DNA from: an uncultured Actinomycetes bacterium
GTDB lineage: Bacteria > Actinomycetota > Acidimicrobiia > Acidimicrobiales > RAAP-2
NCBI GenBank assembly: GCA_903825305.1
Contig: CAIKAC010000013.1
Span: 124,001 to 188,000 of the forward strand
Direction: 5' to 3'
DNA: 64,000 nucleotides
Position 1 is the first letter of the stretch; every line of letters starts with the position of its first letter. Below the pieces are notes generated by a model. It did not search any database, had not been told where the DNA came from, and saw only the letters and a list, made by a program, of their open reading frames with translations. Positions 4,453 through 27,562 of this stretch are shown piece by piece. Position numbers and translations under genes: made by a program.

Positions 4453-5376
4453 ATGACTGATCTCTTGCAGCTTCCTCCCGATCCCATTTACGACCGGCGC
4501 CGGACAATTCAGTCCATGGCTTCAGCATCGATGGGGCGTCGAAAGATGCGCAATCAGGTTTTCACGGGTCTCATCGTGAGTTGCCTAGTTATTGCTCTCA
4601 TTCCTTTGTTCTTTGTCATCCTGGCGATCATTGAGAAGGGAATCGCAGCCATCTCGTGGGGATTCATCTCAAAGACTCCGGTGCAGCCCACCATCTTTGA
4701 TCAGAACAACATCGGCGGTGTCGGCAATGCCATTGTTGGCACGCTTATCATCGTCGGCCTCGCAGCCTTGATTGCGGTGCCAGTTGGGATCATCGTCAGC
4801 ATCTATCTGGCTGAATCCGATAATAAGGTTGCCAACCTTTTCCGCGCAGCTATCGAAATCTTGACGGGCCTGCCCTCAATTTTGCTTGGTGTGTTCGCGT
4901 ACTCCTACATTGTGCTCAAGACTCACACCTATTCAGGTTGGGCCGGGTCGTTCGCGCTCGCGGTGCTGATGATCCCTGTGATCACGAAGGCCTCAGAGAA
5001 CGCGATTCGTAGTGTGCCGGCCACCTTGACTGAGGCCGGATTGTCACTTGGCGCCCGCTCCTCGACGGTGGTGCGAAAGGTCGTAGTTCCAGCCGCCGCT
5101 CCCGGCATCATCACAGGGGTGCTCCTCGCCCTCGCACGGGCCATTGGGGAGACCGCACCGATCTTGTTGGTTATTGGTGCATCACTTAACTACGAAGTGA
5201 ATCCTTTGAACCCCATGCCTGCATTGCCGACCACCATTTACAACTACGCAGGATCGGCGTATGCCAGTCAGCGCACGGCCGCTTGGGGTGTTGCCTTCAT
5301 CCTGGTCGTGCTGGTGTTGATTTTGAGTTTGGGTAGTCGATTTATTGCTGCCCGCATGAGGAGAGAGCGTCACTAA
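4453..5376 (+). CDS. pstA: Phosphate ABC transporter permease PstA
   Basis: A 307-residue second permease of the phosphate transporter. An N-terminal cytosolic tail of about 35 residues precedes a helix with [16 protein letters not shown]. The PstA signatures include [31 protein letters not shown] and the coupling loop [20 protein letters not shown]. It starts 2 bases after the pstC stop and ends in a TAATG overlap with pstB, indicating translational coupling. Confidence 0.95.
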
Positions 5377-22426: not shown

Positions 22427-23110
22427 GTGGCCGAGACAGCCCAAGAGCTGGCCGAACGCCTTGATCTGCACTTTGCGGATCAAGGCCTGTTGGACCTCGC
22501 CCTGACGCACCCAAGTTTTGCGGTTGAACACGGCGTTGAATCGAACCAACGACTTGAGTTCTTGGGTGATGCCCTGTTGGGACTTGCCATAGCGCAGCAT
22601 CTCTATGAGCGCTGCCCGAGTCACAACGAGGGTCAACTCTCCAAAATTCGCATTGGCGTCGTGAACGAGACCGTGCTCGCCGCTGTGGCAGAGGAGCTCT
22701 CCCTAGGCGCCGCCCTCAAGATGGGAAGAGGCGCCGAAACAGAGGGTTTGGCTCATAAGCCCTCGGTGTTGGCTGATGCCTTTGAGGCCTTACTCGGAGC
22801 GATTTTCCTAGACCAAGGCGTCGCGGCGGCAAGTGCGTTTGCGGCGACACAGCTTGAATCCTGGATTCTGGCGGCAATCGCCGACCCTGGTGGCGAGGAC
22901 GCGAAGTCAAAGCTCAACGAATGGGCGCAAGCCACCACGCATCAGATGCCTCGCTACGAGGTGACCTCCTCAGGTGCGGATCATGACCCGACCTTTGACG
23001 CTGTGGTCTACCTCGGTGATCGGCCGTTAGGCACGGGGCGTGGCCGTTCCAAAAAACTCGCAGAACAAGAAGCGGCAGCAGCCGCATGGAAGGTGGTTGA
23101 GGGTGGCTGA
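22427..23110 (+). CDS. rnc: Ribonuclease III
   Basis: A 227-residue double-strand RNA endonuclease that processes rRNA and structured mRNA. The catalytic signature is NQRLEFLGDALLGLAIA, the second metal motif is LADAFEALLGAIFLDQG, and the C-terminal dsRNA-binding domain (about residues 155-225) ends with GRGRSKKLAEQEAAAAAWK. The start is GTG 22427, 13 bases after acpP. It overlaps the next gene's GTG. Confidence 0.96.
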   Translation: MAETAQELAERLDLHFADQGLLDLALTHPSFAVEHGVESNQRLEFLGDALLGLAIAQHLYERCPSHNEGQLSKIRIGVVNETVLAAVAEELSLGAALKMGRGAETEGLAHKPSVLADAFEALLGAIFLDQGVAAASAFAATQLESWILAAIADPGGEDAKSKLNEWAQATTHQMPRYEVTSSGADHDPTFDAVVYLGDRPLGTGRGRSKKLAEQEAAAAAWKVVEGG

Positions 23111-24008
23111 GCTTCCTGAGATCGAAATTGTAAGACAACAGCTTTCAAAGGAGATTGTCGGCCGCAAAGTTAAGACTGCCGCGATCACCAATTCAAAAAC
23201 CGTGAGCCAAAATAAGACCGCGAAAGCATTCCGTGATTTGCTCGAAGGTCGCATCATCAAAGACGTGATGCGTCTTGGTGGGTCGCTCGTCTGCGGTCTC
23301 GATTCAGGAGACGCTCTGGTGATCACGTTGGGTGAGGCCGGTCAACTTCGGCGCCCCAAGACCACCAAAGAAGCCAAAGAGAAGCACACCACGGCGGTGT
23401 TGTCTTTCACGGTGGGTGGAGAACTGCGCCTTGTGGACCCCAAGGGGGAGGCGCGCATGTTCGTTTCTCACCCACCCGCCGAAGGCTCAACCGTGACGAT
23501 TTCAGGCTCGGCAGCCATTGCTGTTGGCGGCGAAGGTCGCAATACGCGACTACGCGTGCCTGAACTTGCCATGCTGGGATTCGACCCCATGGAAGACGTC
23601 ATGAGCTGGGAGCGATTCGCGATCGTCCTGCGCGCCAAGTCAGTGTCGGTTCGGAGTTTCTTGGTGAACCAAGAAATGGTTTCGGGTGTTGGCGACCTCT
23701 ATGCCGATGAGATCCTCTTTGGTTCTGGCATCAACCCTTCGCGTTTGACTGATTCGCTTTCTACGACCGAAGTTCGTCGGCTCTGGCGTTCTTTGGTGGA
23801 GCTCTTGGCTGAATCCATCAAGCAAGGTGGTGCGAGCATCGAGGGCGAGAACACCTTCCGCGACGTCTTTGGCAAGACCGGTAATTTCGCCCAGTACATC
23901 GAGGTTCATGGCCGAGACGGCGAGTCCTGCCGGCGCTGCCGCCGTGAGATCACCAAGGTGAAATCCGGGACCCATACCATTTACGTCTGCGAGCACTGCC
24001 AGATCTAA
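23103..24008 (+). CDS. mutM: Fpg/MutM-like protein lacking key catalytic residues
   Basis: A 301-residue protein in the usual mutM slot between rnc and smc. The overall Fpg architecture is intact: N-terminal AELPEIEIVRQQL, helix-two-turn-helix VNQEMVSGVGDLYADEILFG, and zinc finger CRRC...CEHC. However, the catalytic proline (MPELPE in Fpg) is Ala2. The Lys of the RR-KYLL motif is Gly in RLGGSLV, HLGMSG reads TLGEAG, DPRRFG reads DPKGEA, and the VGN Asn is Asp. E3 is kept. The GTG at 23103 overlaps rnc, so another start is unlikely. By established Fpg chemistry it should not be a normal glycosylase. It may be a DNA-binding pseudoenzyme. Confidence 0.85.
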   Translation: MAELPEIEIVRQQLSKEIVGRKVKTAAITNSKTVSQNKTAKAFRDLLEGRIIKDVMRLGGSLVCGLDSGDALVITLGEAGQLRRPKTTKEAKEKHTTAVLSFTVGGELRLVDPKGEARMFVSHPPAEGSTVTISGSAAIAVGGEGRNTRLRVPELAMLGFDPMEDVMSWERFAIVLRAKSVSVRSFLVNQEMVSGVGDLYADEILFGSGINPSRLTDSLSTTEVRRLWRSLVELLAESIKQGGASIEGENTFRDVFGKTGNFAQYIEVHGRDGESCRRCRREITKVKSGTHTIYVCEHCQI

Positions 24009-24073: not shown

Positions 24074-27000
24074 ATGTATCTCAAGCGCTTGACCATGAAG
24101 GGCTTCAAGTCCTTTGCCGACCCGACCACCCTTGAATTTGAGCCCGGAGTAACGGTTGTCGTTGGCCCTAACGGGTCAGGAAAATCCAATGTGGTCGATG
24201 CCGTCACCTGGGTGCTTGGCGCACAAGGTCCGCGTTCGATGCGTAGCGCCAAAATGGAAGACGTCATCTTTGCGGGCACCTCCTCGCGCCCCGCGCTGGG
24301 GCGTTCGGAAGTGTCGCTCACGATCGACAATGCTGACGGCAAGCTGCCCGTTGACATGGCGGAAGTGACGATTAGTAGAACGCTGTTTCGTTCTGGAGAT
24401 TCTGAGTACGCCATCAATGGGGCACCCTGTCGCTTGCTTGACATTCAAGAGTTGCTCAGTGATTCGGGCGTCGGCCGCCAGCAGCACATGATTATTGGTC
24501 AGGGCCAACTTGCCAATGTGCTCGATGCACGCCCTGAAGAGCGACGGTCCATCATCGAAGAAGCGGCTGGTGTGCTGAAGCATCGTCGCCGCAAAGAGCG
24601 CGCGGAGCGCCGCTTGGCGGCGACGCAAGAAAATCTGGAGCGACTCGGCGATCTGGTTCGTGAAGTGCGTCGCCAAATGCGCCCCTTGGAGCGCCAAGCT
24701 GCAGCAGCTCGTCAATACGGCACCCTGGCCGAAGAGCGTCACGCATTGCGGCTTCACCTTGCCGGTCAGGACTATGCGAAATACCAAGCACGGCGCGATG
24801 AGATTGCGACTTTGCTTCGCACCTCGGGAACTACCGAGCAAGAGTTGCGCCAGACCTTGGCAGAACTTGACGCCCAAGCCACCGCGACTGCTGCCAATCT
24901 GACCCATGACCAAGCCGAGGATCTCGCCAAATCCGTTGCCGATGTGCAAGGCCTCACCGAGCGAGCCCGTGGCCTTGATGCGGTACTCGAACAACGAGCC
25001 CAGCGCGTCAAGCAAAGTCTCGAAGCCGCGGCCGATGAAGACGTGGTTGCTTCACTTGAAACTGATTCTGCCAAAGTCCGCTCGGAGATTACGGCTGTCG
25101 ATGAGGCCGTTGAGGCACTCAGCCCAGAGCGCTCGAGTTTGCGAGACGCCGAAGGTGCGCTTGAGCGGGCAGAGAGCGAATACGAGGCCACCTGGGGTGG
25201 TGGGGAGGACGAGGACGCCCTAGAAGCGTTGAAGCGCGCCTCAGAGCGAGCCGAGCTGCTCGAACGCGCGGCAAGCGTGCGTGAGGAGCAACTCAGCAAA
25301 GTCATTGAGCGAATTGGTCGCATTGATCAGGCTATTGCTTCGTCTCAAGCGCAACGCAGCGAAGCTGAAGGCGCGCTCGTCGAAGCAACGGAACGAGCAA
25401 CGTCGCTGTCGGAAACGCTCGATGCCGCACAAACCATCGAAGGAGAGACGGCGAGCGCTCTCCAAGCTGCAGAAGAAAATGCTGCCAAAGCTGAAGAGAA
25501 GAGTGCTCGAGCCTCAGCCCGCGCCGAGGCTCTTGGCCGTGCCCTTGATGAGCTCAGCGGCCGCAGCTCTCAAGCAGCATTGAAAGAACTCAAGGGGGTC
25601 GTAGGCTCACTCGTCGAGCTCATGGTGGTTGAGCCGGGCTGGGAGCGTGCCGTAGAAGCCGCTGCAGGTGCAGCGGTGGCAGCAGTGGTCGTTGACTCTC
25701 GCAGTTCCGCTCGAGAAGCGCTCGAGCGACTTCGTCGTGAAGGCGCCAATGGTCTGGTGTTGGCCGCCGGTGGACGGAGCCAAAGCATCGCGGATTTGCC
25801 CGCAGGGGCTGAATCAGTTCGAAGCCACGTTTCGTTGGCAGCTGGTGCGACGAGTGAACTCTCGGGCGTGCTCGATCAGCTCTTTGGCCGAGCTGTCCGC
25901 GTCGGCAATGTTGAATCAGCCATTGATCTGGCTCTCGAGCGACCCGAACTCGTTGTCGTTACCGAGACCGGCGATCGCTTCAGCGCATCGGGGTGGCGGA
26001 TTACTGCGGGAACGGGTGTCGTTACGGCACAAGCGGTGGCAGAAGCCACGGCACTTGCTGCCAAAGCCAGCGAGGAAGCTGAACTTGCACAACGCGCTCG
26101 CGTAGATGCCAGGCAAGCCCACGACGCTGCTGTGGAATCGCTGGCCCAAATTCGGCGCGAGCTTGACCACCTGAGCGCCGATGCACTCGTCATTGAGGCC
26201 CGCGTAGCAACGGCGGTCGCCGCCATCGAGCGGTCGACGGCCGAACGAGCCGAAGCCGCTCAGGGCCAATTGGAGCTTGCCGAGGCACTCGAAACGGAAC
26301 GGGAATCACTGCGCGAAGTGGCGGAGCGCCTGCCAGAACTCGAACAAGCAGCATCGGTGGCCGAAGAACGGGCGCGTTGGGCCGCAGAAGCTGCCGCGAC
26401 CCTCGAAGCACACCGCAACCAAGTTCGATCCATGCGCCAAGAACTTGAAGTTCGCACCGCAGAGCTTGTAGAGCGTCGTCGCACCTTGGCTCAACGGCTT
26501 GAAGAAGTAGAGCGACGATTGGCCGGACACGTCGAAGCGCGCAACCAGGCCGAGGCTCGTCGCTTGCGGCTTGAGGCCAATTTGACCGCCATCGTTCGAC
26601 TCGCTCAGATCACGAAGCGTTGTGGGGCAGAGCTCGAGAACCTCTTGCGCACGAGGCGCACAGCCTATGAAGCTGAAGTGCAATCTATGCGTGCATCGAA
26701 TGAGCGCCTAGAGCAGTTGCGACGTGATCGTGCAGGTGCGGAGACGGCCCTGAATGCCCACCAGGGCCGAAGCCGTGAACTCGAAATCGAATCTGCCGAA
26801 GTTGCGATCCGCCTCGAAGCCACCTTGGAACTCATTCGCAAGGATCTCGAAGTAGATCCCTTGGCCGCCATTGAGGCACCGCTTCCCGAACTACCTGAAG
26901 GGATGAGTGCTGAAGAGCGGGCACTGAGTCTCGAAGCTCAGCTTGATGCGCTCGGGCCGATTAACCCCTTGGCACTCGAGGAGCTCAGTGCCTTGGAAGA

Positions 27001-27562
27001 GCGTTCCGGTGACCTCGAAGCACAAGTCAACGATGTGAGAGAGGCGCGACGTGAACTCCAAGAAGTCGTGCGCACCTTGGACGAAGAAATTATGAACACC
27101 TTTGCGTCGGCGGCGGCCGATGTCAACGAGCACTTCAGCGCGTTGGTGGCACTGTTGTTCCCCGGTGGTCAAGGTCGCATGGTGCTCACTGATCCTGACG
27201 ATTTGCTCAATACCGGGGTTGAGATCGAAGTTCGACCCTTGGGTAAAAACGTCCGTCGCGTCTCGCTGCTCTCAGGTGGAGAGCGCTCCATGGCGGCATT
27301 GGCGTTCCTCTTTGCTGTGTTCCGGTCGAGGCCGTCGCCCTTCTACCTCATGGACGAAGTTGAGGCAGCTCTTGACGACGTGAACCTGCATCGCTTCTTG
27401 GGATTGCTTCAAGAATTCCGCGATGAAGCCCAGCTCATCGTGGTCTCGCACCAGAAGCGAACCATGGAGACGGGAGATGCCCTCTATGGCGTCACCATGG
27501 CGCCTGGTGGATCGAGCCAGGCGGTCTCGCAGAAGGTGCCAAAGGCTGAGGCGTCGGCGTGA
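24074..27562 (+). CDS. smc: Chromosome segregation ATPase SMC
   Basis: A 1162-residue condensin core. The N-terminal ATPase half is MYLKRLTMKGFKSFADPTTL with Walker A GPNGSGKSN (residues 31-38). Two long coiled-coil arms flank the hinge (about residues 500-660, containing LVELMVVEPGWERAVEAAAG). The C-terminal half has signature LLSGGERSMAALAFLFAVF and Walker B FYLMDEVEAALDD. The ATG at 24074 is chosen because it begins the conserved MYLK-L-GFKSF motif. It overlaps ftsY by 4 bases. Partners ScpA/ScpB are not in the window. Confidence 0.97.
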   Translation: MYLKRLTMKGFKSFADPTTLEFEPGVTVVVGPNGSGKSNVVDAVTWVLGAQGPRSMRSAKMEDVIFAGTSSRPALGRSEVSLTIDNADGKLPVDMAEVTISRTLFRSGDSEYAINGAPCRLLDIQELLSDSGVGRQQHMIIGQGQLANVLDARPEERRSIIEEAAGVLKHRRRKERAERRLAATQENLERLGDLVREVRRQMRPLERQAAAARQYGTLAEERHALRLHLAGQDYAKYQARRDEIATLLRTSGTTEQELRQTLAELDAQATATAANLTHDQAEDLAKSVADVQGLTERARGLDAVLEQRAQRVKQSLEAAADEDVVASLETDSAKVRSEITAVDEAVEALSPERSSLRDAEGALERAESEYEATWGGGEDEDALEALKRASERAELLERAASVREEQLSKVIERIGRIDQAIASSQAQRSEAEGALVEATERATSLSETLDAAQTIEGETASALQAAEENAAKAEEKSARASARAEALGRALDELSGRSSQAALKELKGVVGSLVELMVVEPGWERAVEAAAGAAVAAVVVDSRSSAREALERLRREGANGLVLAAGGRSQSIADLPAGAESVRSHVSLAAGATSELSGVLDQLFGRAVRVGNVESAIDLALERPELVVVTETGDRFSASGWRITAGTGVVTAQAVAEATALAAKASEEAELAQRARVDARQAHDAAVESLAQIRRELDHLSADALVIEARVATAVAAIERSTAERAEAAQGQLELAEALETERESLREVAERLPELEQAASVAEERARWAAEAAATLEAHRNQVRSMRQELEVRTAELVERRRTLAQRLEEVERRLAGHVEARNQAEARRLRLEANLTAIVRLAQITKRCGAELENLLRTRRTAYEAEVQSMRASNERLEQLRRDRAGAETALNAHQGRSRELEIESAEVAIRLEATLELIRKDLEVDPLAAIEAPLPELPEGMSAEERALSLEAQLDALGPINPLALEELSALEERSGDLEAQVNDVREARRELQEVVRTLDEEIMNTFASAAADVNEHFSALVALLFPGGQGRMVLTDPDDLLNTGVEIEVRPLGKNVRRVSLLSGGERSMAALAFLFAVFRSRPSPFYLMDEVEAALDDVNLHRFLGLLQEFRDEAQLIVVSHQKRTMETGDALYGVTMAPGGSSQAVSQKVPKAEASA

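What the first reader, a model, noticed from the sequence alone, without database searches (positions are those of the whole stretch)
23103..24008. MutM in the conserved slot has lost its catalytic residues
Seen: Ala replaces the N-terminal catalytic Pro, Gly replaces the RR-KYLL Lys, DPRRFG has become DPKGEA, HLGMSG has become TLGEAG and the VGN Asn has become Asp. The zinc finger, helix-two-turn-helix and E3 are retained. Fpg chemistry needs Pro2 as the Schiff-base nucleophile. The scaffold seems preserved for DNA binding with a new or regulatory role, or a different nucleophile is used. It is full length and sits in an intact operon, so it is not a decaying pseudogene.
Basis: partly seen in the sequence, partly recalled or inferred. 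Interest (0 to 1): 0.65.

Follow-up and report, generated by a model that had tools for sequence, protein, structure and literature searches.

The report
Dead repair enzyme kept for something
A DNA repair enzyme gene in these bacteria has lost its cutting and DNA-gripping residues, yet evolution still protects it, and this happened again and again, nearly always where the genome holds a second, working copy, which suggests that the enzyme has an unrecognised second job.

Summary
The 301-aa MutM between rnc and smc has Ala for Pro2 and Gly for Lys60. It has also lost His74, Met77, Arg112, Phe114, Asn174 and Arg264, while keeping E3, E6, the fold and four zinc cysteines. It is not a quirk of one genome. 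Among 225 rnc-smc-slot MutMs of the order, residue retention is two-peaked: 74 keep 0-2 of 7 core residues, 150 keep 6-7, one keeps 4. Dead forms arose repeatedly (12 label changes on a neighbour-gene tree, 5 forced by well-supported branches) and remain under purifying selection (window pair dN/dS 0.036). Loss tracks an intact Fpg elsewhere: 66 of 74 dead-slot genomes have one above the curated cut-off, against 0 of 76 live-slot genomes. The window genome has one too. The same pairing occurs in 5 of 5 genomes of a distant family of the phylum. All 74 dead proteins keep five charged H2TH residues that none of 29 off-slot Fpgs has in full. Best reading: slot MutM has a second, non-catalytic function in its H2TH domain, and its repair chemistry was repeatedly handed to another Fpg. 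The partner is unknown.

The parts
23103..24008 (+). Catalytically dead MutM/Fpg orthologue in the rnc-smc slot (301 aa, GTG start)
   Evidence: fold model mean pLDDT 93.2, Z 34.1 to MutM 1r2y
23106..23108 (+). Codon 2, GCT (Ala), in place of the Pro2 nucleophile
23280..23282 (+). Codon 60, Gly in place of Lys60
23742..23822 (+). Residues 214-240 of the H2TH domain, holding the conserved charged patch R214, E223, R225, R226, K240
   Evidence: five of five kept in 74 of 74 dead, 111 of 150 live and 0 of 29 off-slot proteins
23928..23999 (+). Zinc finger, residues 276-299, four Cys kept in the window
22427..23110 (+). rnc (RNase III), overlapping the mutM start by 8 bases
   Evidence: name from recall of the family and the conserved synteny
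24074..27562 (+). smc, next gene of the conserved slot (frame opens at TTG 24026)
   Evidence: name from recall

Best explanation
The MutM encoded between rnc and smc in this order is proposed to be an old two-function protein: an 8-oxoguanine/FaPy glycosylase and a non-catalytic docking protein that works through a charged face of its H2TH domain. When a lineage came to hold another Fpg elsewhere (in a few small genomes, without one), selection on the slot copy's chemistry lapsed. Its nucleophile, phosphate contacts, lesion-probing residues and often the zinc site were then lost, while the fold, the N-terminal helix and the H2TH patch were kept. In the window the slot protein would now do only the second job, and the Fpg at C12:95036 would do the repair. 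SHOWN by computation: the residue losses, their recurrence, purifying selection, the coupling to an off-slot Fpg, and retention of the patch. INFERRED: loss of activity, weak or absent canonical DNA binding, and the docking role. The partner is unknown; products of the same operon (SMC, RNase III) are the first candidates, on synteny alone.
For: (1) Seven core residues: 74 dead (0-2), 1 intermediate (4), 150 live (6-7) among 225 slot proteins. (2) Dead proteins nest inside the slot clade, and off-slot Fpgs form a separate clade with two separated groups: L198-L200, and 26 others. (3) 12 changes of state on an rnc+smc tree of 183 loci, 5 forced by starred branches; 17 all-dead clades under midpoint rooting; within the window's family 4 changes, 3 forced, with the window genus beside the live genus g7. 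(4) Purifying selection: window pair dN 0.064, dS 1.75, dN/dS 0.036; over the 22 closest dead pairs 0.036-0.318; pN/pS below rnc in 20 of 22. (5) Off-slot Fpg above the TIGR00577 cut-off: 46 of 52 dead and 0 of 56 live genomes, then 20 of 22 dead and 0 of 20 live in a second set; in family f65 5 of 5 dead-slot genomes. 29 of 29 off-slot proteins read keep seven of seven. (6) Patch: 74 of 74 dead, 111 of 150 live, 0 of 29 off-slot. Identity drops least in the H2TH core (53.2 against 57.5%), compared with 36.7 against 53.7% in the beta domain. (7) No locus with rnc directly upstream of smc on the same strand lacks mutM among the 53 smc loci examined.
Against: Nothing here shows a partner or any activity. 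On the tree only 5 independent pairs could be formed on starred branches; the Fpg went the same way in about 4, opposite in 0, p 0.125. Eight of 74 dead-slot genomes lack an off-slot Fpg above the cut-off (G010, G226, G053, G133, G164, G093, G089, G161). The patch could be a fold-stabilising salt-bridge network rather than an interface; I had no coordinates to test exposure. Dead proteins are somewhat less constrained than live ones (closest live pairs dN/dS 0.031-0.209). dS of the window pair is near saturation. The window itself has N211 and S213 where most relatives have R and D.
Confidence: 0.66

Rival explanations
1. Lesion or DNA-structure sensor: the protein no longer cuts but still binds damaged or branched DNA through the H2TH domain and zinc finger, protecting or signalling it.
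For: The fold is intact, the window keeps four zinc Cys and a net charge of +4, and K/R at position 184 is kept in 72 of 74 dead proteins.
Against: Canonical DNA-contact residues are lost together, mean charge falls to -1.1, and 43 of 74 dead proteins lost zinc Cys.
Confidence: 0.13
2. Partner or regulator of the off-slot Fpg: a pseudoenzyme that stabilises or tunes the active one, as in enzyme-pseudoenzyme pairs.
For: Dead slot and off-slot Fpg co-occur in 66 of 74.
Against: Dead forms persist without an off-slot Fpg above the cut-off in 8 of 74; the off-slot Fpgs fall into two separated groups; the patch is complete in 111 of 150 live proteins, and none of the 76 live-slot genomes tested has an off-slot Fpg over the cut-off to bind.
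Confidence: 0.09
3. Active enzyme with altered chemistry: a monofunctional glycosylase using Glu3 and water, or another nucleophile.
For: E3 is kept in 63 of 74 dead proteins. Nei2 P2A keeps glycosylase activity (PMC11323726, abstract and discussion).
Against: Lys60 is absent in 71 of 74 dead proteins (70 other residues, 1 gap), and the equivalent K51A kills both Nei2 activities (PMC11323726). Replacements are heterogeneous (A, I, L, F, R and others at position 2), with no shared new nucleophile.
Confidence: 0.06
4. No protein function: the frame is kept only for rnc-mutM-smc translational coupling or mRNA structure.
For: rnc and mutM overlap by 8 bases.
Against: Low dN/dS and pN/pS and five residues kept in 74 of 74 are amino-acid-level constraints.
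Confidence: 0.04

Closest known systems
MutM/Fpg (formamidopyrimidine-DNA glycosylase; PF01149 + PF06831, TIGR00577)
   Same: Orthologous by slot and tree, same fold end to end (Z 34.1, 273 aligned residues, rmsd 1.9 to 1r2y), H2TH and zinc finger present.
   Different: Lacks Pro2, Lys60, His74, Met77, Arg112, Phe114, Asn174 and Arg264; scores 184.3 against the cut-off 203.3 of TIGR00577.
AlkD2 (HEAT-like repeat glycosylase paralogue)
   Same: A bacterial glycosylase homologue that keeps the fold, has weak DNA affinity and no excision activity (PMC4433238, abstract read).
   Different: Different fold and family. Here it is the syntenic copy that is dead, in many lineages, beside another Fpg that keeps the active-site residues.
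Mycobacterial Nei2 and Fpg2
   Same: Actinobacterial Fpg/Nei proteins. The psoralen-survival role of Nei2 is uncoupled from AP lyase activity (PMC11323726, abstract and discussion); M. tuberculosis Fpg2 lacks the N-terminal part (PMC2734929, passages).
   Different: Nei2 is an active enzyme and lies next to lhr; Fpg2 is truncated. Neither is described there as a full-length pseudoenzyme between rnc and smc.

Membership tests
MutM/Fpg family (homology) | Fapy_DNA_glyco N-terminal and H2TH domains above Pfam cut-offs | tested here: met
   78.3 against 25.5 and 71.9 against 34.7 bits
MutM/Fpg family (homology) | Fpg fold | tested here: met
   AlphaFold2 model pLDDT 93.2; the listed PDB matches are Fpg/Nei proteins
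Active Fpg (equivalog TIGR00577 / NF002211) | Score above the curated cut-off | tested here: not met
   184.3 against 203.3 and 191.4 against 212. The cut-off is not a clean activity test: some dead slot proteins pass it
Active Fpg (equivalog TIGR00577 / NF002211) | Pro2 nucleophile | tested here: not met
   Ala2
Active Fpg (equivalog TIGR00577 / NF002211) | Lys60, His74, Asn174, Arg264 and the Met77/Arg112/Phe114 lesion-probing set (roles mostly recalled) | tested here: not met
   G60, T75, D198, H291, E78, K114, E116 in the window
Active Fpg (equivalog TIGR00577 / NF002211) | Four-Cys zinc finger | tested here: met
   4 of 4 in the window, though 43 of 74 dead orthologues lack it in full
Active Fpg (equivalog TIGR00577 / NF002211) | Excision of 8-oxoG/FaPy | not testable with these tools
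   needs an assay
Pseudogene | Relaxed constraint, frame damage | tested here: not met
   Intact frames; dN/dS 0.036 for the window pair, 0.036-0.318 over 22 dead pairs

The most novel reading that the evidence does not exclude
Actinobacterial slot MutM carries an undescribed second, non-enzymatic function through a conserved H2TH charged patch, tied to its place between rnc and smc (for example docking on SMC or on RNase III/ribonucleoprotein). Repeated takeover of the glycosylase role by another Fpg has left natural separation-of-function proteins that now perform only that role.
Probability: 0.45. Interest if true: 0.82.

Novelty: new variant of a known kind. Interest (0 to 1): 0.68.

Why it matters
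MutM is taught as a dedicated repair enzyme. Repeated loss of its chemistry, with retention under selection of its gene position, fold and one set of charged residues, argues that in this order it does something else as well. The dead orthologues are ready-made separation-of-function reagents for finding that role. They are also likely to be misannotated: at least nine dead slot proteins pass the curated equivalog cut-off or reach it with neighbouring segments. A genome count of Fpg by annotation would overstate 8-oxoG repair capacity, notably in G010 and G226, where no Fpg above the cut-off is left.

Tried and rejected
Start-codon error: rejected. Assembly or sequencing artefact: rejected, because the same-genus genome G001 shares nearly all the changes. 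Decaying pseudogene: rejected on dN/dS. One ancient dead paralogue in the slot: rejected, since dead proteins nest among live slot proteins and two genera hold both states. Slot emptied after replacement: not seen where rnc and smc remain in line. Family f61 has rnc on the opposite strand beyond smc in the four loci where rnc was found, two f31 genomes (G149, G180) have neither rnc nor mutM beside smc, and G085, G126, G190 and G105 were uninformative. NFACT-like reuse for ribosome work: only a sub-threshold Pfam hit (E 0.0062, below cut-off), kept as a lead only. Mapping the patch on the surface: not done, no coordinates available. Literature: the ten paper runs listed no report of dead slot MutM; the library holds open-licence papers only.

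Sampling limits. The first 183 slot genes came from relatives and order members ranked by similarity to the window protein, which is itself dead. The other 42 came from 60 hand-picked genomes, the first 30 chosen for weak or absent hits and the rest from genomes not yet read. So 74 of 225 is not an unbiased prevalence. G036 had no slot locus and G117 only fragments; both were left out of counts. G041 (4 of 7, no off-slot Fpg) was left out of the dead/live contrast. Off-slot Fpg was looked for in 76 of the 150 live-slot genomes and in all 74 dead-slot genomes. Of the 66 off-slot Fpgs in dead-slot genomes of the order, 29 were read residue by residue; another 5 of 5 in family f65 were read too.

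Full report
Observation. The open frame 23103-24008 (+) encodes 301 residues and is recognisably MutM: Fapy_DNA_glyco and H2TH domains score well over their Pfam cut-offs, and a model of mean pLDDT 93.2 superposes on MutM 1r2y over 273 residues at 1.9 A, Z 34.1. It scores 184.3 bits against the 203.3 cut-off of TIGR00577. Against G. stearothermophilus MutM it has lost Pro2, Lys60, His74, Met77, Arg112, Phe114, Asn174 and Arg264, and keeps Glu3, Glu6, Tyr176, Asp178, Glu179 and four zinc cysteines. The roles of these residues are mostly recalled. For Pro2, Glu3 and the Lys60 equivalent, mutants of mycobacterial Nei2 are in print: P2A loses lyase but not 5-OH-U glycosylase activity, K51A loses both (PMC11323726; abstract, discussion and passages read). 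So the loss of Lys60 with the rest is stronger evidence than the loss of Pro2.

It is a pattern, not an oddity. I read the MutM between rnc and smc in 183 genomes of the order and 42 more; a slot was accepted if rnc and/or smc lay in the fetched stretch. Seven core residues (P2, K60, H74, R112, F114, N174, R264) are either nearly all there or nearly all gone: 74 keep 0-2, one keeps 4, 150 keep 6-7. Six of the 225 have a gap at one or more of the seven columns, mostly where a contig end or the edge of the fetched stretch cut the protein. Named relatives are Acidimicrobiaceae/Acidimicrobiales metagenome-assembled genomes. Of those 80 loci, 77 are 7 of 7, L346 is 6, L319 is 3 and L337 is 2.

Recurrence. 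On a tree of the neighbours rnc+smc for 183 loci (so not biased by the slot protein itself), dead/live needs 12 changes, 5 of them forced by starred branches (FastTree). With midpoint rooting there are 17 all-dead clades. In the window's family alone 4 changes are needed, 3 forced; genera g10 and g11 contain both states, and the window genus sits beside the live genus g7. A protein tree puts the six dead proteins sampled inside the slot clade and the off-slot Fpgs in a separate clade with two groups.

Selection. Window against G001: dN 0.064, dS 1.75, dN/dS 0.036 (rnc 0.103; smc part 0.017). Over the 22 closest dead pairs dN/dS is 0.036-0.318, and pN/pS is below that of rnc in 20 of 22; these pairs are not independent. 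The closest live pairs lie at 0.031-0.209, so constraint is somewhat relaxed but far from absent.

Coupling to a second Fpg. With TIGR00577, 46 of 52 dead-slot genomes have an off-slot match over the cut-off and 0 of 56 live-slot genomes do (a 57th, G117, had no readable slot). A second set gave 20 of 22 and 0 of 20. Fisher's exact test on 66/74 against 0/76 gives 4.8e-34, but this ignores shared descent. On the tree only five independent pairs are available on starred branches, about four of them in the expected direction and none opposite, p 0.125. Outside the class, family f65 gives a separate case: 5 of 5 slot proteins keep 1-3 of 7, and 5 of 5 genomes hold an off-slot Fpg with 7 of 7. The window genome's own off-slot Fpg is at G000:C12:95036-95845 with 7 of 7. 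Exceptions: G010, G226, G053, G133, G164, G093, G089 and G161 have dead slots without an off-slot Fpg over the cut-off. G010 and G226, at 1.5-1.7 Mb, thus seem to have given up Fpg while keeping the dead protein. Which came first, second Fpg or slot loss, is not shown.

What is kept. In dead proteins identity falls least in the H2TH core (53.2% against 57.5% in live) and most in the beta domain (36.7 against 53.7%). In the window genus 3 of 87 H2TH positions differ, against 17 of 105 in the beta domain. Five charged residues (R214, E223, R225, R226, K240; D allowed for E223, R for K240) are complete in 74 of 74 dead, 111 of 150 live and 0 of 29 off-slot proteins. Every live protein in the two families that also hold dead forms has all five. 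In f65, at the patch positions scored (not K240), four of five slot proteins have the same letters. The zinc site is complete in only 31 of 74 dead proteins against 150 of 150 live, and mean net charge falls from +6.7 to -1.1 (127 live and 51 dead of the first set, rows without gaps at the core columns). The dead family therefore keeps neither the chemistry nor, probably, the usual DNA grip, but keeps one part of the H2TH domain.

Interpretation. The simplest account is that slot MutM was two-function before the losses, and that an Fpg elsewhere made its chemistry dispensable. Retention of the gene in place (no in-line rnc-smc pair without mutM among the 53 smc loci) fits a role linked to these genes but does not prove it. 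The nearest conceptual precedent is AlkD2, an inactive glycosylase homologue of another fold (PMC4433238, abstract). The discussion of PMC11323726 (read) describes a Nei2 role uncoupled from AP lyase activity and cites a non-catalytic role for NEIL3. Confidence by step: loss of canonical catalysis about 0.93; purifying selection about 0.95; coupling to a second Fpg in this order about 0.9; second function ancestral and in the H2TH patch about 0.6; partner from the same operon about 0.3.

Noticed in passing
L391-L394 (G336, G377, G365, G351; family f71 of the same phylum): MutM lacks Pro2 and no other core residue: the frame reads M/V-ELPEVEV with the start codon where Pro should be (in L392 a stop codon directly precedes the GTG). 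No second Fpg over the cut-off was found in these four genomes. Possibly a glycosylase without the usual lyase.
   Followed up: partly
L034 (G010) and L081 (G226): Small genomes (1.5-1.7 Mb, listed 97% complete) with a dead slot MutM and no Fpg above the cut-off anywhere.
   Followed up: partly
L055 (G041) and L319: Intermediate slot proteins (4 of 7 and 3 of 7 core residues), perhaps mid-way in loss.
   Followed up: no
L231, L232, L235, L236 (family f61): rnc lies on the opposite strand beyond smc and no mutM was found between them: a rearranged operon.
   Followed up: no
G000:C12:147833-148117 (L003): A third Fpg/Nei-like protein of the window's genome, Nei-like, keeping Pro2, Lys60, Asn174 and Arg264, in an open frame of 582 codons.
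   Followed up: no
window 4669-4737 (+): Very weak H2TH-like match (12.3 bits, below cut-off), probably chance.
   Followed up: no
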